Position numbers and translations under genes: made by a program | The notes under the pieces: model-generated | The model's input: only the letters and a program-made list of their open reading frames with translations | The model's database searches: none | Told to the model about the DNA's origin: nothing | In this document: in pieces, positions 47,647 through 55,771 of the stretch | Position numbering within the stretch: the first letter of the stretch is position 1 | Layout: each line of letters begins with the position of its first letter | NCBI GenBank assembly: GCA_026552855.1 | Contig: JAPMTX010000137.1 | Location: 1-61,572 of the forward strand | Direction: 5' to 3' | Length of the DNA stretch: 61,572 bases | Source: Candidatus Methanoperedens sp. | Lineage (GTDB): Archaea; Halobacteriota; Methanosarcinia; Methanosarcinales; Methanoperedenaceae

Positions 47647-50322
47647 ATGTCAGCATTGCAACTTAGAATGTCGGGAATCGATATTATAGGCAGCATCCCA
47701 TGGGGTACTCACTTTTGCCAGCTTTATCAGACAAGGGATGATTTAATCGAGACTCTTGTGCCTTACTTCAAAGCAGGACTAAAAAACAATGAGTTCTGCA
47801 TATGGATTACATCAGAACCTCTAAATGAAGAAGAAGCCAGAGAAGCGATGAGAGAAGCGATGCCCGATTTTGATGAATATGCAAGAAAAGAGCAGATAGA
47901 GATCATTCCATATACCGAATGGTATCTCAAAGATGGCGCTTTCGAATATGAAAGAGTCCGGGACGGCTGGCTTGAAAAACAGGATCAGGCTCTGGCTGGA
48001 GGTCATGATGGTTTGAGGTTAGCAGGGACTACTTTCTGGCTGGAAAATTATCTTTGGAAGGATTTTGCTGATTATGAGTTAGAAGTGAACAATATCATTG
48101 GCAGGTATAAGATGCTGGCTGTTTGCCCATATTCGCTTGATAAATGCGGGGCGAACGAAATCCTGGATGTAGTGAATACGCATCAATTTGCTCTCATCAA
48201 GCGTGAAGGTGCATGGAAAATCATAGAGAGTCACGACCTTAAGCAAGCAAATCAGGCATTACGGGCTGAGATCACAGAGCGCAAGCGGATGGAGGAGACG
48301 TTAAAGGAGAGCAACCAGCAGCTTGATTTACTCTCCTACACAGCAGGTAAGCTTCTGACAAGCGAGAAGGCGCATCAAGAATTAGAAAGACAGGTTAAGG
48401 AACGGACTGCAGAACTGGAAAAAGCCAACATGGAACTGGAGGCTGAAATCCGCGTGCGTAAACAGGCAGAAGAGAGCGTGAAGGCAGAACGGCAGCGGTT
48501 CAATGATATCCTGGAGATGCTGCCTGCCTACCTTGTGCTGTTGACGCCCGATTATCACGTGACCTTTGCCAACCGCTTCTTCCGGGAGCGCTTCGGCGAA
48601 TCACACGGCAGGCGCTGCTTTGAGTATCTGTTCGGGCGCAGCGAACCCTGCGAGATTTGCGAAACCTATACAGTTCTGAAAACCATGGCGCCCCATCATT
48701 GGGAATGGACAGGACCGGACGGTCATAATTACGATATCTTCGACTTCCCCTTCACAGATACGGATGGCTCTGCTCTCATTATGGAGGTGGGCATCGACAT
48801 TACCGAGCGCAAGCGGGCTGAGGAACGAATACGAGAACAGGCTGCACTTCTTGATAATGCACATGATGCTATTGCAGTAAGGAACATGGATCACTGCCTC
48901 ATCTACTGGAATAAAGGCGCACAGAGCCTATACGGCTGGACTGTGGATGAGGTCTTAGGCAGGAATGCCGATAAGCTCATTTATAAAGAAGAATCCCCTG
49001 CCCTCACCGAGGCTAAAAAGAATGTTATTGAGAGGGGTGAGTGGACAGGTGAACTGCACCAGGTGGCTAAAGGCGGCAAAGAAGTCACAGTCGAAAGTCG
49101 CTGGACACTGGTGCAGGATAACGAAGGAAAGCCTAAATCGATACTTATTATCAACACAGACATTACTGAGAAGAAAAACCTTGAGTCACAATTATTGCGA
49201 GCGCAGCGGATGGAGAGCATAGGCACTCTTGCAGGCGGTATAGCGCACGACCTCAACAATATTCTGACGCCGATAATGATGTCCGTGCAGATGCTAAAAG
49301 AAAAAACTGCAGACGAACAGAGCCAGAAATTGCTTAACATACTCGAGAAGAATTCCCAGCGTGGGGCTAATTTAATAAAGCAAGTTCTGTCATTTGCACG
49401 GGGCATGGAAGGTAAACGTACTCCACTTCAGGTAGCGTATCTGATATCTGAAATTGAGAGGGTTATAAAAGAGACATTCCCGAGAGACATTGAAATCCAA
49501 ACCGGCATACAGAAAGATCTCTTTATGACCTCAGGAGACTCCACACAACTGCATCAGGTCATAATGAATCTGTGCGTAAACGCCAGAGATGCCATGCAAG
49601 AAGGCGGCGTGTTGAGCATATCTGCAGAAAATTTTTTTATTGATGAGAACTACGCAAGAATGCATCTTGAGGCAAAGGTCGGTTCTTACGTCGTCGTTGC
49701 AGTCTCGGATACAGGCGTAGGTATTCCTCCTGAAATACTGGATAGAATCTTCGAACCGTTTTTCACGACAAAAGAGCAGGGTAAAGGCACAGGGCTTGGT
49801 CTTTCTACTGCTCTTGCGATCGTTAAAGGTCACGGCGGATTTATAAATGTGTATAGCGAGATGGGAAAAGGAACTACGTTTAAGGTTTATTTACCTGCGA
49901 TTAAAACCGAAATCCAAAAATCAGAAGAGCAGTTTGTTGAATTGCAAATCGGGAACGGGGAATTGATCCTGATTGCCGAGGATGAAGCCTCGGTTCTTGA
50001 GATTACCAAAGCAACACTGGAAGCACATGGTTACAGAGTGCTAACAGCCGGTGACGGGGCAGAAGCAATAGCCGTGTATGCGAAAAACGTAGAAGAGATC
50101 AAGGTCGTTCTTATGGATATGATGATGCCTATTATGGACGGCCCAAGTAGCATCCGGGCGCTTCGCAAGATTAACCCGGGTGTGAAGATTATTGCAGTGA
50201 GCGGATTAACCGAGAACAGCAAGCTTACTAAAATCACAGGCGACAATGTACATGGTTTTCTGCCAAAGCCTTATACCGCCGAGAGGATGTTGAAAGCCAT
50301 ACACGAAGTTTTAAGCTCCTGA
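47647..50322 (+). CDS. Hybrid sensor histidine kinase with MEDS, two PAS and receiver domains
   Basis: The 891-residue protein has, in order: a MEDS/DcmR sensory domain (about 8-195, IPWGTHFCQLYQTRDDL onward), a coiled coil (200-280), PAS1 (285-385), PAS2 (398-508), HisKA with the phosphorylated His534 in GGIAHDLNNIL, an ATPase domain (630-752) with NARDAM, DTGVGIP and GTGLGLS, and a receiver domain (772-890) with acceptor Asp824, acidic pocket E778/D779 and K874. There is no membrane segment, so it is cytoplasmic. PAS1 has C324, C335 and C338 (CxxC in EPCEIC), which could bind a redox or metal cofactor. M8 is an alternative start. Many such kinases occur in methanotrophic archaea. No output response regulator gene is next to it. 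Confidence 0.9.
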   Translation: MSALQLRMSGIDIIGSIPWGTHFCQLYQTRDDLIETLVPYFKAGLKNNEFCIWITSEPLNEEEAREAMREAMPDFDEYARKEQIEIIPYTEWYLKDGAFEYERVRDGWLEKQDQALAGGHDGLRLAGTTFWLENYLWKDFADYELEVNNIIGRYKMLAVCPYSLDKCGANEILDVVNTHQFALIKREGAWKIIESHDLKQANQALRAEITERKRMEETLKESNQQLDLLSYTAGKLLTSEKAHQELERQVKERTAELEKANMELEAEIRVRKQAEESVKAERQRFNDILEMLPAYLVLLTPDYHVTFANRFFRERFGESHGRRCFEYLFGRSEPCEICETYTVLKTMAPHHWEWTGPDGHNYDIFDFPFTDTDGSALIMEVGIDITERKRAEERIREQAALLDNAHDAIAVRNMDHCLIYWNKGAQSLYGWTVDEVLGRNADKLIYKEESPALTEAKKNVIERGEWTGELHQVAKGGKEVTVESRWTLVQDNEGKPKSILIINTDITEKKNLESQLLRAQRMESIGTLAGGIAHDLNNILTPIMMSVQMLKEKTADEQSQKLLNILEKNSQRGANLIKQVLSFARGMEGKRTPLQVAYLISEIERVIKETFPRDIEIQTGIQKDLFMTSGDSTQLHQVIMNLCVNARDAMQEGGVLSISAENFFIDENYARMHLEAKVGSYVVVAVSDTGVGIPPEILDRIFEPFFTTKEQGKGTGLGLSTALAIVKGHGGFINVYSEMGKGTTFKVYLPAIKTEIQKSEEQFVELQIGNGELILIAEDEASVLEITKATLEAHGYRVLTAGDGAEAIAVYAKNVEEIKVVLMDMMMPIMDGPSSIRALRKINPGVKIIAVSGLTENSKLTKITGDNVHGFLPKPYTAERMLKAIHEVLSS

Positions 50323-50361: not shown

Positions 50362-51021
50362 CTACGATCTCTCCGTCTCGCGCTTCTCCTCTGCGCGCAG
50401 GTATCTTCCCAGTTCCCTGTGGCTTTCCGCGATCACGTCCGCTTCCTTCAGTTTCTCCCTGTCAAGATATGCAGGTATGGCTATGCACCGCAAACCCGCT
50501 CTTTTTGCCGAGCGTATGCCAAGAGGGGCATTCTCAACGACGACGCAATGCCCTGCGGGTATGCCGAGTTTTTCGACAGCCTTGAGATACGGCGCCGGGG
50601 AAGGCTTGCTCTCCCCTGAATCATCTCCATCGATGATCACGTCGAAGGTATCGGGGAAAAACCTGTTTATCAGGTCCTGTACCGTCTTTCTGTTAGACCC
50701 AGAGACCACAGCGAGTTTGTATTTCGTTCTCAGAGAAGCAAGCAGTTCTTTTATGCCGTCAAAAGGTTTGGCGTGCTCTATCCGGTTGAAGATGTCTATT
50801 TTCCTTCTGTTCAGCTCCTGTATATCCTTCTCCGTCGGAACGCGGTTGAAGCGTCTGAATATTATATCCACTATCTGCCTGTGGTTTGAGCCTTCAAGCT
50901 CGTATATATCTCTTCTGTCGATATGAATGCCCACAGTAGAGAACGCCTGTTTCCACGCCTCGGCGTGATACGGCATGGAATCCACAAGCACACCGTCCAT
51001 ATCAAAAATAACAGCTTTCAT
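50362..51021 (-). CDS. HAD-superfamily phosphatase (beta-phosphoglucomutase-like)
   Basis: This 219-residue protein starts with the nucleophile loop FDMDGVLVDSM (Asp7, Asp9), has an alpha-helical cap (to about residue 90), LAVVSGSNRKTV (motif II Ser) and GESKPSPAPYLKA (motif III Lys). In the last motif VVVENAPLGIRSA an Asn stands where most members have a second acid (VEDA). It would dephosphorylate or isomerise a small sugar phosphate. It overlaps the CapA-like gene start by 20 bases. The Asn may reduce metal affinity or may be neutral. Confidence 0.83.
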   Translation of the reverse strand: MKAVIFDMDGVLVDSMPYHAEAWKQAFSTVGIHIDRRDIYELEGSNHRQIVDIIFRRFNRVPTEKDIQELNRRKIDIFNRIEHAKPFDGIKELLASLRTKYKLAVVSGSNRKTVQDLINRFFPDTFDVIIDGDDSGESKPSPAPYLKAVEKLGIPAGHCVVVENAPLGIRSAKRAGLRCIAIPAYLDREKLKEADVIAESHRELGRYLRAEEKRETERS

Positions 51022-51994
51022 GTTCGATCTTCTCTACTTTTGTTCCGAACTCCTCTGAGAGACTGGTAATCCTTTCGCTTATTTCCTTATACACGTCGCC
51101 CCTTGCTACGTTGACCTGGCACATAGATATTTCTACAGGTATCATCTCGACCTTTTTTATTTTTCCGTTCAATACGGTCACAAGGAACAGCAACTGCTGG
51201 TCGTTCTTTTCCCCTGGTCCCACGTAGTAATCGTCAATGTAATCCCCGGTATCGTACATGATGAGCTTTTCCCTGTATATCTCGATACCCTGGAAGATAT
51301 GCGCGCTGTGCCCGTGGAAGATATCCGCCCCCATCTCGATAACTGCATGGGCGAATTCCCTGAAGAGCTGCGTCGGTCTCTCCCGCATGTTGGGTCCCCA
51401 GTGGATAGAGAACACCACGATATCAGAAGTCGAGCGCGCCTCATCTACAGCCGCCTTTACCCTTCGCATTACACCATCAGCAAGCGTAATAGGGATATAG
51501 TTCGTTCCCGGAGAAGTCTCTGTGGCAGCAAAGGAAGGTTCGTTGTCAGTGAAAGAGATTACGCCCACCCTTATATCTCCTGCCTCAAGCACTGCAGGCT
51601 TTTCTGCCTCGCTCAGGTTCTTCCCGGCGCCGGCATGGTCTATGCCAGCCTCATCAAGTATTCTCAGCATCTCAAGCAGCGCCTCCTCCCCGAAATCCAG
51701 CGTATGGTTGTTGGCGAGTGATACATAATCTATTCCTGCTGTCTTCAGGACATCGACAGCATGAGGATCAGCCCTGAAGAAGAACACCTTCGGGCTCCTG
51801 TCCCACGGTTTTCCGTCCTCTGCGATCACGCATTCAAGGTTGATAAGCCGAAGATCTGCCTTTTTTAGAAGCGGCAGCGTATCTCCCCACACATAATATG
51901 GTCCCGTGTGCCCTGTCATTTCGTTCACGAGCCTGCCAAGCATCACGTCCCCGGTGAAAGCAAGAACTATACCCTTTTCCCCGCCAGTATTCAT
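51002..51994 (-). CDS. CapA/PgsA-like metallophosphoesterase
   Basis: The 330-residue product has the CapA layout: LAFTGDVMLGR (residues 11-21), LINLECVIAEDG, ISLANNHTLDFG-like LANNHTLDFGEEALLEML, VFSIHWGPNMRE and ADIFHGHSAHIFQG, all metal-site motifs of the calcineurin-like PGA_cap family. CapA supports poly-gamma-glutamate or capsule synthesis in bacteria, and in archaea homologues are common but poorly known. There is no signal peptide in the predicted N-terminus. It is coupled to the HAD gene. Substrate and role are uncertain. Confidence 0.83.
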   Translation of the reverse strand: MNTGGEKGIVLAFTGDVMLGRLVNEMTGHTGPYYVWGDTLPLLKKADLRLINLECVIAEDGKPWDRSPKVFFFRADPHAVDVLKTAGIDYVSLANNHTLDFGEEALLEMLRILDEAGIDHAGAGKNLSEAEKPAVLEAGDIRVGVISFTDNEPSFAATETSPGTNYIPITLADGVMRRVKAAVDEARSTSDIVVFSIHWGPNMRERPTQLFREFAHAVIEMGADIFHGHSAHIFQGIEIYREKLIMYDTGDYIDDYYVGPGEKNDQQLLFLVTVLNGKIKKVEMIPVEISMCQVNVARGDVYKEISERITSLSEEFGTKVEKIEHESCYF

Positions 51995-52123: not shown

Positions 52124-55100
52124 CTATCTGCGCCTGATGCCTGAAATAATGAAATACACAGCCACCAAAGATAACAGTACAAAGATCATATCCAAACCCG
52201 GGATCCTCTTAAGGAAATCCCTCGCCCTATCCATAGCATTATTCCCGCTGCCTTTCCCGGAGACTATCGAAAAGTTCACACTGTAAAACTCGCCCCATTT
52301 ACTATCAGTTCCCATTGCATGGATGTAAATTACATGCCCTCCGGCCGGGATATCGGCTGTATTGATCTCAGTCACCATCTGCTCGACCTGCGAATCGAAA
52401 GCTCCATCCACTGCTTTGAGGGGTTTACCATTCCCGGACGTACCTCTGGTATCTATGAAGTATTCAGCAGACCTGACTTTCAGCCCATACCCGGCATTCG
52501 CTTTAGCGGTCAGATTAACGGTTTCACCTTTCTTAACCGTGGATTGGGACAGCGTTACCTCACTTATTACAGAGAAGCCGGCAGGTTTTACCAGGTTGTG
52601 AGAGCCCCGGATGTGACAGACCTCACAGTCCGACTTGAACTTGTGGGTTCCATTGTTGATATCAGATGCACCGTAGAACGGCTCTTTCCGGTCGATGTGG
52701 CAGGATGTGCAGTACCTCGGTGCGATATGAGTCGGAGAATGCGTCTGCGGCTCTGCTGCTTCTGTGTGGCATGCCCAGCACGCTTTATCGATTGAGTCCG
52801 ACAGGGATGCTTTATTTGAAGCCGCTATGTTCAATATAGAATGCTTCCCAAGCCCTGTTGAGATATTCTCAATTCCCGAAATCCGAAGCCTCTTTGATGC
52901 ATTATGGCACATTGCACAGTCCGCCCAGTTCCTTGTATCGTCGCGCATGTTTGGAGAGTGAAGGTTTGGCGGGATTCTCCCGACCGTGAACGTATCGTTA
53001 ATCCTGAACCAGCTACTGTTGTACCCGAAAAGCGTTGTGTTCGATGTTACCTTCAGTATCTGAGGCGATAATGCCACCACATCCTTAAGCAGTATGAAAT
53101 TTGGTCTGCCCTGGAAGACTGCTGTGATATTTGCAGTGAAAATAGTCACATTGGTTCCGGTGGTATCCTTATACTTGATTCCAGGTGAGTATATAAACGC
53201 TGAGCCGATGCCAGCAACATCATCCTTAACAACACTGCCGTCGATGCTTAAAGTCAGCCACGAGAGATTGCTATCCGTACTTACCTCGTTGAGTTTCAAA
53301 GAATAGTTATCTGAAATATTCCATGTCTCTCCTTCTATCAGGTATTTTTGCCTGGAGAGAGTGTTTAAGAACTTCCCCGGCTGGTTTCCGAGCTGGTCGA
53401 ATATATAATCCTCGTCATTAAAGTATACCTTACTTTTATTTTCTGATTTAAAATCGGTCAATACTTTTGTATAATATATTATGTCGTCAGCATCTGTTTT
53501 ATATTCCTTATCAATAACCTGGTACCGCTCTTTTTCCTCCGAGCTCCGATACAGGTGACAGGCATAGCAGGCAGGGTTCTTACTCTCCCTATCAGTATGG
53601 TTCTTTTTTATCCTGGACCCTGAGAACTGAATTAACCCGCCTTTATCGCCCTTAAAAATCGAGGATATATTCAGCGTGATGAACGGAGTCTCAAATACTG
53701 AGCTATTGATGAGGACTTTCTTCTTATACTCATACTGGGTATTTGTGCCGAGCAGGATTTCATCCACAACGCTACCATTATATATGAGCTGAAGGTAGGC
53801 ATTCTCCCTTCCAATTGATATCTCCAGTACCTTTAAGTAATACCCTTCACCGAGATAGACAGTTTCACCTTCAGACGCCGTAAGTTTATTCCTGATCCTC
53901 TCAAACTCGATAAGAGATGTTCTGTTCTTACTGATCAAAGTTGCATTTCCCCACTTCTCACTGTTGTCTTCATCCAGATGGCAATAGGTACAATTAAAAG
54001 AATCAATTAATTTAGTTTTCGACGCGTAGTGAGATGCAAGAGCCAGATTCGGATTGGTGCCTTCTGTTACCAGACTGTTTACATGGCAGTTCTCACACGG
54101 CTCTATTGTGGTTATATTGTAGCTTGTAACGTTGCCTGGATTGTCGTTTCGGCTCGCGTTCTTGAAGTGCGAATAAACCATCGTCTCGTTGTATCCTGAT
54201 TGCGAAACCGAGTGGCAGTCGTTGTTGTTGCAGTTCTTTGGGGTATTGTAGTTGGAAGGATGGTCATTTGTAGGCTGTGCGCTCTCACTTCCGTCACCAT
54301 CCCCGTGGCATCCCCAGCAGCGTGAATTGCTGGTGCTCACAGCAGTAGAAATGTTGTAGTTCAGAGTGCTGTGAACCGAATTGCTATTGTTAAGCGCCGA
54401 GAAATTGACCTGTTTTGCGGATGATCCTCCTGTATCGTGGCAACTGATACAGCTCCGAATAGATGAAATGTTGCCTGCTATGAGCGTGTCCCGCCGTGTC
54501 GTGCCGTTCCACGGAGAGGATGCATTATGGCATTTAGTGCAGTTCACGCTCCTGCTTATGTTATGCAGCGGCCATGTTGCAGGCACACCGCTTGATATCT
54601 TATAAATAGTCCATTTATTGGTCGTTGTATTTTTATAGAGACCATTGTTGTAGCTGCCAGTACCATTATTAGTAACAGAGAAGTTTGTGGCATTTAAGAC
54701 GAATGTCTGGTCGTGGCAGGCTTCGCACGTCACGTTATCGAGATGAAGCGAGGTGAACGACCATGTATGGTCTGCTGTTTCATGGCACACTTCGCAGCCG
54801 GTCACGCCTGAAGTTGTGTTTTTGACTTCAAAAGTATGATTGTAATTACTATACGTTCCGTTCGCATGGCAACTAGCACAGGTGAAACTTAAATTAACCT
54901 TATGGTATCCTGCAAACTTGCTGTCATGGCTGCTACCTGTGTGGCATTTCTCGCACAGAACCGTGGCATTGGCAACAGCCTCATAGACAGGGTAACCCGC
55001 TTGAGAACTTGAGGTTGAGTTATAGTACGCCAGTGGTTCTCCACCAATGGATGTACTTACTTTTCTATTGTGGATGTTATGGCATACCCTGCACTGGATA

Positions 55101-55771
55101 CCCTTCCAATCAGCTTCTGAGATGGCTGTACCTGATGATGCGCTGGCATTATAATTGGGCGGAGATTTGCATTTTGCGCATGAGTTTTTACTGTCGTATG
55201 TTTCATTCCCGTGCCTTGACCTGGCATGAGCGCTCAGGTACCAGCCAGAGGTAGCGTTCTCAATTTTACGATTACTATGGCATGTTAGAGTGCATGCGTA
55301 GTATGGGAACATACCTATGCCCACACCACTATTGCTCGTGAGCGGTATTCCTGATATATTGTAGTCATAGAAGTTATGCTCAACTGTCAGATTGTGGTCA
55401 TGGGTGAAGAGGGAATTATTCAGGCTGAATCTCTGGGTAGTATTTGCAAAGTGACATTTAGTACAATCTGATGAACTTGAATGCCTTTCAGTGAGACGGG
55501 CAGTTCCGTTTATATGACAGGACACAGTGCATGTGTTACTTTCGTTCACTGTGAAGCCCTTAGTTCCTGTAGTATGATTATCTATAGCAACATACCCTGC
55601 GTGGCAGTCCGTACAGCTCGGCGCGCTTGCATTTCTTGTCTGGTTATGCGTTGAGTTAACTGAAGCGTTGTAGGAGCTGTGGCAGTCGGCGCATTCCGCT
55701 GCAAGTGAAGTGGGTATTATCGGTGTAAAAAAAGAGAGAGTTAATAGTGCCAGTATAATGTATCGTAACAT
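52124..55771 (-). CDS. Giant multihaem c-type cytochrome with two S-layer-like domains and a PGF-CTERM-like tail
   Basis: The 1215-residue protein has a signal peptide (1-25). Haem motifs: 18 CxxCH (C27, 53, 103, 227, 273, 298, 326, 349, 411, 441, 485, 559, 594, 735, 952, 998, 1021, 1049), two CxxxCH (C81, C160), one CxxxxCH (C514) and one CxxCK (C198). Two S-layer-like units, about 625-722 and 805-900 (for example EGETVYLGEGYYLKVLEIS, then an IFKGDKGGLIQ-type strand), flank one lone haem at 735. An Ig-like region (1065-1170) and a helix (1193-1211) preceded by PGLD end the protein, like a PGF-CTERM sorting tail. I count 58 N-x-S/T sequons. Such MHC/S-layer fusions are known from ANME archaea, where they are proposed to pass electrons through the S-layer. 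Confidence 0.93.
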   Translation of the reverse strand: MLRYIILALLTLSFFTPIIPTSLAAECADCHSSYNASVNSTHNQTRNASAPSCTDCHAGYVAIDNHTTGTKGFTVNESNTCTVSCHINGTARLTERHSSSSDCTKCHFANTTQRFSLNNSLFTHDHNLTVEHNFYDYNISGIPLTSNSGVGIGMFPYYACTLTCHSNRKIENATSGWYLSAHARSRHGNETYDSKNSCAKCKSPPNYNASASSGTAISEADWKGIQCRVCHNIHNRKVSTSIGGEPLAYYNSTSSSQAGYPVYEAVANATVLCEKCHTGSSHDSKFAGYHKVNLSFTCASCHANGTYSNYNHTFEVKNTTSGVTGCEVCHETADHTWSFTSLHLDNVTCEACHDQTFVLNATNFSVTNNGTGSYNNGLYKNTTTNKWTIYKISSGVPATWPLHNISRSVNCTKCHNASSPWNGTTRRDTLIAGNISSIRSCISCHDTGGSSAKQVNFSALNNSNSVHSTLNYNISTAVSTSNSRCWGCHGDGDGSESAQPTNDHPSNYNTPKNCNNNDCHSVSQSGYNETMVYSHFKNASRNDNPGNVTSYNITTIEPCENCHVNSLVTEGTNPNLALASHYASKTKLIDSFNCTYCHLDEDNSEKWGNATLISKNRTSLIEFERIRNKLTASEGETVYLGEGYYLKVLEISIGRENAYLQLIYNGSVVDEILLGTNTQYEYKKKVLINSSVFETPFITLNISSIFKGDKGGLIQFSGSRIKKNHTDRESKNPACYACHLYRSSEEKERYQVIDKEYKTDADDIIYYTKVLTDFKSENKSKVYFNDEDYIFDQLGNQPGKFLNTLSRQKYLIEGETWNISDNYSLKLNEVSTDSNLSWLTLSIDGSVVKDDVAGIGSAFIYSPGIKYKDTTGTNVTIFTANITAVFQGRPNFILLKDVVALSPQILKVTSNTTLFGYNSSWFRINDTFTVGRIPPNLHSPNMRDDTRNWADCAMCHNASKRLRISGIENISTGLGKHSILNIAASNKASLSDSIDKACWACHTEAAEPQTHSPTHIAPRYCTSCHIDRKEPFYGASDINNGTHKFKSDCEVCHIRGSHNLVKPAGFSVISEVTLSQSTVKKGETVNLTAKANAGYGLKVRSAEYFIDTRGTSGNGKPLKAVDGAFDSQVEQMVTEINTADIPAGGHVIYIHAMGTDSKWGEFYSVNFSIVSGKGSGNNAMDRARDFLKRIPGLDMIFVLLSLVAVYFIISGIRRR

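What the first reader, a model, noticed from the sequence alone, without database searches (positions are those of the whole stretch)
52124..55771. Cytochrome with 21 haem motifs and two embedded S-layer-like domains
Seen directly: 18 CxxCH, two CxxxCH, one CxxxxCH and one CxxCK motif in one 1215-residue chain, with two units of the GETVxLGEGYYLKV type at 625-722 and 805-900 that resemble the methanosarcinal S-layer (DUF1608-type) domain. MHC/S-layer fusions are established for ANME-type archaea. The layout here (17 haem-motif sites before the first S-layer unit, one haem between the units, and four after the second) suggests a wire that crosses the S-layer with a heavy outer and a lighter inner block.
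Basis: partly seen in the sequence, partly recalled or inferred. Interest (0 to 1): 0.8.

Follow-up and report, generated by a model that had tools for sequence, protein, structure and literature searches.

The report
S-layer electron conduit with exchangeable head
This methane-oxidising archaeon makes a known kind of protein wire thought to carry electrons out through its protein coat, but the outer end carries a swapped-in unit with an unusual haem site that may do chemistry rather than just conduct.

Summary
In detail: a 1215-aa protein with 21 CxnCH motifs plus one CxxCK and two S-layer stretches (PF07752 72 bits, cut-off 30; Foldseek best hit 3u2g). Relatives are mostly Methanoperedens. 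The architecture matches ANME MHC type A (PMC9012536 section 23), so the wire itself is not new.

Comparison adds three things. (1) In 39 of 39 conduits of the same genus and family, the part from the second haem before CxxxxCH to the C-terminus has exactly 10 haem motifs, while the N-terminal head has 3 to 97. (2) Here the head is a separate ~400-aa module; in two genomes the same chromosomal site holds a three-copy module protein and a short conduit as separate genes, so the window gene is a module-conduit fusion. (3) CxxCK is not decay: 15 of 15 module copies covering the site keep it. Haem-masked profiles tie the module to a 15-16-haem family (E 2.7e-7) that is NrfA-related. Direct module-NrfA similarity is not significant and NrfA's tyrosine is absent (0 of 14). 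Whether the head is catalytic is open.

The parts
52124..55771 (-). Whole gene: 1215-aa multihaem cytochrome / S-layer fusion
55697..55771 (-). Signal peptide-like stretch, residues about 1-25
   Evidence: hydropathy; sequence MLRYIILALLTLSFFTPIIPTSLAAEC; no signal-peptide program was run
54476..55708 (-). Exchangeable head: CxxCK module, residues 22-432, 12 haem sites (11 CxnCH + CxxCK); its last haem lies close to the splice with the conduit
   Evidence: tandem copies in other genomes
55166..55180 (-). CxxCK (CAKCK, residues 198-202), followed by SP
52574..54463 (-). Constant 10-haem conduit core, residues 437-1066
54212..54232 (-). CxxxxCH (CNNNDCH), residues 514-520, a CxxxxCH in 23 of 23 aligned sequences (22 relatives and this protein)
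53606..53899 (-). S-layer unit 1, residues 625-722
53555..53569 (-). Single haem motif between the S-layer units, residues 735-739
   Evidence: in 23 of 23 aligned sequences
53036..53359 (-). S-layer unit 2, residues 805-912
52613..52918 (-). Inner block of four haem motifs, residues 952-1053
52262..52570 (-). Haem-free beta domain (Ig-like by appearance), residues 1068-1170; absent from the relative L019
   Evidence: strands (low to middling confidence); alignment
52133..52195 (-). C-terminal hydrophobic helix, residues about 1193-1213, followed by RR
   Evidence: hydropathy; helix

Best explanation
The gene encodes an ANME MHC type-A S-layer electron conduit of a Candidatus Methanoperedens-like archaeon. 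It is exported, probably glycosylated and anchored by its C-terminal helix (inferred). [quoted passage not shown] Electrons from membrane oxidoreductases, probably through small cytochromes, would enter at the inner four and leave through the outer five into an exchangeable head (inferred). In this protein the head is a 12-site module joined in one chain with the conduit; other genomes encode three copies of it in a separate protein beside the conduit gene. Its CxxCK haem sits at the place that, through a 15-16-haem intermediate family, corresponds to the NrfA haem-1 site. The lysine site is therefore a selected functional feature of the head, whether as a tuned relay or as a reactive centre.
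For: S-layer domain over cut-off, best fold match 3u2g, profile E 1.7e-9 to the same chain. Ten core haem motifs in 39 of 39 conduits whatever the head, and in 12 of 22 rows from three other families of the order (7 more have extra motifs counted to the end of a longer frame, 3 are cut short by the alignment start or the contig end). In-place fusion: 8 of 10 window neighbours collinear in L065 and 5 of 10 in L066, where separate three-module and conduit genes stand at that site. CxxCK in 15 of 15 module copies that cover the site. Module vs 15-16-haem family E 5.2e-24, and 2.7e-7 with haem motifs masked. That family matches PF02335 at E up to 0.01 in 9 of 9 members and NrfA chains in the PDB, 8bcx E 1.4e-8, 2j7a 1.3e-7. 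Surface location: 58 sequons in residues 26-1190 against a shuffle mean of 22, maximum 39. Literature: one S-layer MHC of 23 haem motifs was differentially expressed on electrodes against nitrate (PMC10874420, passages).
Against: No usable structure of the haem parts, so no haem chain was measured. Direct module-NrfA comparison is not significant (Prob 7.9; 0.1 masked). With haem motifs masked, the link between the intermediate family and NrfA is Prob 75, E 2.5e-5 and covers only the C-terminal part, not the CxxCK region. Unmasked E-values between multihaem proteins are inflated: pairs that vanish on masking reached 1.3e-8 and 9e-20. The haem-free domain of about 100 aa leaves a gap between the last haem and the membrane helix. 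Published expression of S-layer MHCs is mixed (PMC7327174, PMC10874420, passages). No expression data for this gene.
Confidence: 0.72

Rival explanations
1. The head is an enzyme: the lysine-ligated haem has an open distal face and reduces a small acceptor outside the S-layer, fed by the conduit, so the protein is a surface reductase rather than a wire to minerals or partners.
For: CxxCK in 15 of 15 copies; haem 1-2 and 2-3 spacing 29-38 and 43-51 against 38-40 and 42 in four NrfA; best PDB profile hits of the module are 1sp3, E 0.01 (named there 'cytochrome c, putative'; recalled as octahaem tetrathionate reductase), and MccA, E 0.1, both weak; homology to an NrfA-related family; tandem triplication of the module in two genomes.
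Against: The Glu-Tyr-Tyr after haem 3 is in 4 of 4 NrfA and 0 of 14 modules. The distal histidine count is inconclusive: 10 non-motif His conserved in at least 13 of 14 copies, two more in 10 and 11 of 14, for 12 sites. The related family mostly has CxxCH at this place (8 of 9).
Confidence: 0.25
2. The lysine is only a redox tuner: a Lys/His ligated relay haem in an otherwise ordinary wire segment.
For: No recognisable NrfA tyrosine; the module matches general electron-transfer families such as Cytochrome_C7 and Cytochrom_c3_2 in 10 of 10 members.
Against: CxxCK among the haem-rich frames examined is confined to CKSP sites of the module and of one relative, L140 (28 of 116 frame strings, which include overlapping pieces of the same genes); if tuning were the need it might be expected elsewhere in the arrays too (inference).
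Confidence: 0.5
3. The CxxCK is a decayed CxxCH without function.
For: Rare in the family as a whole: the column is CxxCH in many distant relatives in the raw alignment.
Against: 15 of 15 copies keep it with the following SP, at 54-64% identity to the window module for the nine compared; the raw column match is an artefact, since the heads of ten 1180-aa-type conduits show no similarity to the module once haem motifs are masked (E 0.65; unmasked 1.3e-8).
Confidence: 0.03
4. The protein is anchored at the surface but does not cross the S-layer; the S-layer pieces serve only for docking.
For: Both units are truncated DUF1608 copies; the Foldseek match covers only 108 columns.
Against: A haem motif lies between the units in 23 of 23 aligned sequences, and four more lie on the anchored side.
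Confidence: 0.12

Closest known systems
ANME MHC type A (Chadwick et al. 2022, PMC9012536; section 23 read, passages)
   Same: More than 20 haem motifs, S-layer pieces with a single haem motif between them, C-terminal transmembrane helix, no M6-peptidase or pectin-lyase part.
   Different: That paper reads the two pieces as the two subdomains of one S-layer domain; here both match the same subdomain, so two truncated repeats fit better. The parts read do not mention a CxxCK module in these proteins, an exchangeable head or a fixed core haem number; its figures were not seen.
MHC/S-layer fusions of Methanoperedens, 12 to 113 haem motifs (PMC7082337, PMC7327174, PMC10874420; passages)
   Same: Same lineage and architecture; the giants here, such as L080 with 107 motifs in the part held, are probably of that sort.
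   Different: Those passages give counts and expression only, not the rule that a ten-haem core is constant and the head varies.
NrfA, cytochrome c nitrite reductase (PF02335)
   Same: CxxCK haem followed by two haems at similar spacing; relation through an intermediate 15-16-haem family.
   Different: No significant direct match, no Glu-Tyr-Tyr, shorter distance between haems 3 and 4: 21-31 against 73-74.
Methanosarcina acetivorans S-layer protein MA0829 (3u2g, DUF1608 / PF07752)
   Same: Fold and sequence of the two beta units.
   Different: Units truncated and interrupted by a haem segment; embedded in a cytochrome.
MtrCAB / porin-cytochrome conduits (recalled; the analogy is stated in PMC9012536)
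   Same: Works like: carries electrons through the outermost layer.
   Different: One chain through a protein lattice, no porin. Similarity to the Pfam MtrC/MtrF domain II/IV model, 55 bits, is a general multihaem match and was not tested further.

Membership tests
ANME MHC type A | S-layer domain in a large multihaem cytochrome | tested here: met
   PF07752 72.2 bits over cut-off 30; 21 CxnCH
ANME MHC type A | Single haem motif between the two S-layer pieces | tested here: met
   Residue 735; 23 of 23 aligned sequences
ANME MHC type A | C-terminal transmembrane helix | tested here: met
   Hydropathy 2.3 over residues 1194-1212; helix 1193-1213
ANME MHC type A | No N-terminal M6-peptidase-like (type B) or pectin-lyase (type C) part | tested here: met
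   No such Pfam match at E up to 1
ANME MHC type A | Sequence grouping with the published MHC-A proteins | not tested
PF07752 S-layer / DUF1608 | Curated score cut-off | tested here: met
PF07752 S-layer / DUF1608 | Complete ~260-position domain | tested here: not met
   Best stretch covers profile 109-216 of 259, the other 78-201; own-genome tiles cover e.g. 5-259
NrfA (cytochrome c nitrite reductase) | CxxCK haem-binding motif | tested here: met
   15 of 15 module copies covering the site
NrfA (cytochrome c nitrite reductase) | Match to PF02335 | tested here: not met
   Not listed for any of 10 modules at E up to 10, though HMMER's filters drop most matches above 0.1; listed at E up to 0.01 for 9 of 9 of the intermediate family
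NrfA (cytochrome c nitrite reductase) | Catalytic Tyr with calcium-site Glu after haem 3 | tested here: not met
   0 of 14 modules, 4 of 4 NrfA; residues named in PMC4683180 (passage)
NrfA (cytochrome c nitrite reductase) | Open distal face of the lysine haem | not testable with these tools
   Model unusable in the haem part; His count inconclusive
Cytochrome nanowire filaments (OmcS, OmcZ, archaeal filaments; recalled) | Polymerising subunits with inter-subunit haem ligation | not tested
   No test run

The most novel reading that the evidence does not exclude
Methanoperedens S-layer conduits are plug-in devices: a fixed ten-haem unit crosses the coat, and recombination at haem units swaps outer heads. 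In this lineage the head is an NrfA-superfamily-derived enzyme with a lysine-ligated active haem, present once when fused or three times in a separate neighbouring protein. The archaeon would thus carry an external reductase fed by methane electrons through its own S-layer.
Probability: 0.22. Interest if true: 0.8.

Novelty: new variant of a known kind. Interest (0 to 1): 0.57.

Why it matters
How electrons leave ANME archaea through a protein coat is an open question, because these conduits are known mainly from genomes. A core with constant haem number that can be cut out (about 630 aa, residues 437-1066) is a defined and much smaller target for expression and cryo-EM than whole conduits, which reach thousands of residues. 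The conserved CxxCK head makes a specific, testable prediction, a lysine-ligated haem outside the S-layer, and a natural split/fused pair at one chromosomal site suggests which two proteins touch.

Tried and rejected
Aligning full-length relatives suggested that the CxxCK column is CxxCH in many other conduits. Rejected: with haem motifs masked, the N-terminal 640 residues of ten 1180-aa-type conduits show no similarity to the module (E 0.65; unmasked 1.3e-8 in another register); the columns before about residue 411 in that table are forced.

Unmasked profile scores alone: rejected as proof. The module fits two places of the intermediate family almost equally well unmasked (E 5.2e-24 and 7.4e-23); only masking separates them (2.7e-7 and 1.4e-4). 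These E-values are for a single pair of profiles, not for a database.

Direct module-NrfA homology: not significant (Prob 7.9; 0.1 masked). Kept only as an indirect relation.

Counting distal histidines to show an open haem: inconclusive.

AlphaFold on residues 25-1215 with six sequences: mean pLDDT 36.8, useless for haem parts; the S-layer-only model was better (mean 55.5, with most ten-residue blocks of the two units between 57 and 89).

Dropped.

NrfA as partner: matches with E below 1e-130 only in G001, G003, G004 and G030 of 31 genomes of the genus. Of the nine Methanoperedens module genomes only G030 is among them; the tenth, G048, lies outside that search. The window's genome has only weak partial matches (best E 2.7e-5). 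Genomes with the intermediate family at E up to 1e-100: 17 of 31, the window's not among them; 5 of the 9 Methanoperedens module genomes have it, no clear pattern. Viral contigs: no module.

Archaeosortase PGF-type tail: the window has PGL before the helix, but relatives have PAL, PFL or TGL and no such NCBIfam model was listed at E up to 1; rejected.

Module tree: bootstrap not settled, few supported forks; whether fusion happened once or more is not decided. In the conduit tree the three fused rows (window, L063, L064) lie among rows without the module in one clade of 13.

My note says 14 of 22 rows had ten core motifs; recounted from that output it is 12 of 22 (5 rows have 22, 2 have 25, 1 has 9, 2 have 8). 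That note also says 10 other clade-A loci; that call examined 15 other loci.
Full report
Observation. The ORF at 52124-55771 on the minus strand encodes 1215 aa with 18 CxxCH, two CxxxCH, one CxxxxCH and one CxxCK; the mean number of CxnCH motifs in 2000 shuffles is 0.18, the maximum 3. There are 44 cysteines and all lie in these 22 motifs. Pfam finds S-layer PF07752 over its cut-off, with Cytochrome_C7, MtrC/MtrF-like and cytochrome c3 models on the haem parts. The chain has an N-terminal signal-like stretch, 58 N-glycosylation sequons in residues 26-1190 (shuffle mean 22, maximum 39), and a C-terminal hydrophobic helix followed by RR.

Organism. Five related loci came from named genomes: two titled Candidatus Methanoperedens, one Methanoperedenaceae archaeon, one 'uncultured archaeon', one ANME-2 cluster archaeon. 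That the window's own organism is a Methanoperedens is inferred from these. Its assembly has 3.4 Mb, completeness 99.86, contamination 6.49, and 18 PF07752 stretches, including near-complete S-layer repeats on contigs C193 and C28, and a second S-layer cytochrome on contig C15 (1326-aa frame, 39% identical over residues 348-1169).

S-layer parts. Foldseek with the full-length model and with a model of residues 590-938 gives 3u2g, the DUF1608 domain of the Methanosarcina acetivorans S-layer protein, as best PDB match; a six-sequence profile finds the same chain with E 1.7e-9. Each unit matches the same subdomain of both repeats in an own-genome S-layer protein (unit 1 to L107 residues 150-229 and 433-511, unit 2 to 151-250 and 433-526), and the segment between haem 735 and unit 2 aligns to residues 41-107 of the MA0829 chain. 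I read this as two truncated DUF1608 repeats with a haem segment between them. Chadwick et al. (PMC9012536, section 23 read) read the pieces as the two subdomains of one domain with a haem motif in the linker; the layout is otherwise the one they describe for ANME MHC type A.

A constant core and variable heads. I compared 39 conduits of the window's genus and family that cover more than 480 of 630 core residues (31 complete frames, 8 running off a contig or fetched stretch). In 39 of 39 the part from 80 residues before CxxxxCH (in the window, just before the second haem ahead of it) to the C-terminus has exactly ten haem motifs; the heads have from 3 to 97, or 6 to 47 in complete frames. In an alignment of 23 sequences, the window's included, every one of the 16 haem columns from residue 230 on holds a haem motif in 23 of 23, CxxxxCH included; columns before about 411 are not trustworthy, as said below. 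Of the conduits that one search found in other families of the order I examined 22 frames: 12 have ten motifs from the core start on; five have 22 and two have 25, counted to the end of a longer frame without checking where the first ten lie; three (9, 8, 8) are cut short by the start of the alignment or of the contig. The MHC-A paper mentions extended forms with more haem motifs in ANME-2a and 2b. So the S-layer-crossing part appears fixed at ten haems: five before the first unit, one between, four after.

The head here is a module. Residues 22-432 recur elsewhere: one copy each in L063, L075, L076, L077 and L078 (partial), three tandem copies each in L065 and L066, two in L130 and one in L131 from G048 of another family, and a partial copy without the CxxCK region at a contig end in L064. 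At E up to 1e-30 the module is in 10 of 185 genomes of the order: nine of the window's genus and G048. A sample of 392 genomes of the phylum added only two weaker partial matches, in G007 and G016, both to the family described below; viral contigs gave none.

Fusion in place. L065 (G027) and L066 (G002) carry the window's own neighbourhood: 8 of 10 and 5 of 10 tested neighbours are found in order at 71-95% identity. Where the window has one 1215-aa gene, these two have three: a 1381/1387-aa protein of three modules with 33 CxnCH motifs, a 359-382-aa haem-free protein with at most a weak Ig-like match, and a 995/1013-aa conduit with 16 motifs and a short six-motif head. The window gene therefore joins in one chain what those genomes encode close together, with one module instead of three. 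None of 15 other conduit loci tested shares the neighbourhood (one has a single 35% match; several are short contigs). In the conduit tree the three rows with a module (window, L063, L064) sit among rows with other heads in a supported clade of 13, so heads change; the module tree is too weak to order the events.

The CxxCK. All 15 module copies that cover the site keep it, as CA[KR]CKSP (14 aligned, L078; the three G048 copies were found by profile and the motif seen). Among 116 distinct haem-rich frame strings (these include overlapping pieces of the same genes), 28 hold a CxxCK: all are module sites except L140 and its fragment L128, which have CLQCKSPQN. A DNA pattern search over 185 genomes found a further such site, CLQCKSPIN, in G014, among background hits (the reversed-pattern control also gives hits). 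L140 and the G014 frame belong to a family of about 15-16-haem proteins of mostly 900-1200 aa, encoded near conduits in several fetched loci.

Relation to NrfA. Profile comparison of 14 modules with ten of these proteins gives Prob 99.6, E 5.2e-24, with CxxCKSP on CxxCHSP. Because any two multihaem proteins share CxxCH, I masked all haem-motif letters: Prob 93.3, E 2.7e-7 for the alignment that sets CKSP on CHSP, while the next alternative falls to 1.4e-4. The same control abolishes the module's match to the heads of ten 1180-aa-type conduits (1.3e-8 to 0.65) and the match of those heads to the intermediate family (9e-20 to 0.0034), which shows how far unmasked values are inflated. The intermediate family aligns to four Methanoperedens NrfA sequences (unmasked E 7.6e-13, haem 1 to haem 5 in order; masked Prob 75, E 2.5e-5, C-terminal part only), matches PF02335 at E up to 0.01 in 9 of 9 members and NrfA chains in the PDB (8bcx E 1.4e-8, 2j7a 1.3e-7, best stretches in the part after haem 3), while 6i5b ('Uncharacterized protein', E 4.2e-20) and 6qvm ('Multiheme cytochrome cf', E 2.3e-16) score higher through its N-terminal half. 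So the step from the module to the intermediate family at the CxxCK is supported with masking; the step from there to NrfA haem 1 rests on the unmasked alignment. The module against NrfA directly is not significant. NrfA's Glu-Tyr-Tyr after haem 3 is in 4 of 4 NrfA, two of them nearly identical, and 0 of 14 modules, so this is not an NrfA. The distal-histidine count does not settle whether the lysine haem is open.

Mechanism. Shown: composition, S-layer homology, constant core, module identity, in-place fusion, conservation of CxxCK. Inferred: export, S-layer crossing, outward electron flow, haem attachment and lysine ligation. Most likely the protein conducts from the pseudoperiplasm to an outer head whose lysine haem is a functional site. 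I give 0.5 to a tuned relay and 0.25 to a reactive centre.

Literature. MHC/S-layer fusions with 12 to 113 haem motifs are known in Methanoperedens (PMC7082337 and PMC7327174, passages), and a 23-motif one was differentially expressed on electrodes (PMC10874420, passages). The library search for CxxCK with Methanoperedens returned three papers; the passages I saw use CxxCK for NrfA or nitrite reductases. A search for at least four of CxxCK, multiheme, lysine, archaea and S-layer listed ten papers, of which I opened two of those three already named plus the third, and saw the rest only in the listing. A search for S-layer, fusion, nitrite reductase, ANME and multiheme cytochrome together returned one paper, seen only in the listing. 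In these searches I found no description of the CxxCK head or of the ten-haem rule; subscription papers, figures and supplements were not searched.

Noticed in passing
L065 653-18909; L066 821-15035: At the syntenic site the neighbours are 71-95% identical to the window's, while the conduits are 50-59% (depending on the stretch) and the modules 51-58%: the surface cytochromes diverge faster than their surroundings.
   Followed up: partly
L193, L194, L195: Three conduits from one genus of another family seem to end after the haem-free beta domain without a C-terminal hydrophobic helix (tails), so anchoring may differ there.
   Followed up: no
L140 3139-6486 and G014:C183 7085-7111: Two members of the 15-16-haem family carry CxxCK where the other eight listed have CxxCH, a natural His/Lys switch at the NrfA haem-1-like site.
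   Followed up: partly
L145 238-2040: A 601-aa cytochrome with eight CxxCH and a PF02335 match (E 5.8e-22) in G025, possibly an NrfA-superfamily enzyme.
   Followed up: no
L080 3-13589: A conduit of the third clade with 107 haem motifs in the 4529 aa held (open frame 5615 aa).
   Followed up: no
L075 5686-14421 and 14605-16494: A 2912-aa, 58-haem protein with one CxxCK module stands next to a 630-aa frame that coincides with a cytochrome c assembly (PF01578) match.
   Followed up: no
47647-50322 and 51002-51994: A histidine kinase with MEDS sensor, PAS and receiver domains (opposite strand) and a PGA_cap protein stand near the cytochrome gene; neither was found at E up to 1e-20 in the syntenic loci L065 and L066.
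   Followed up: no
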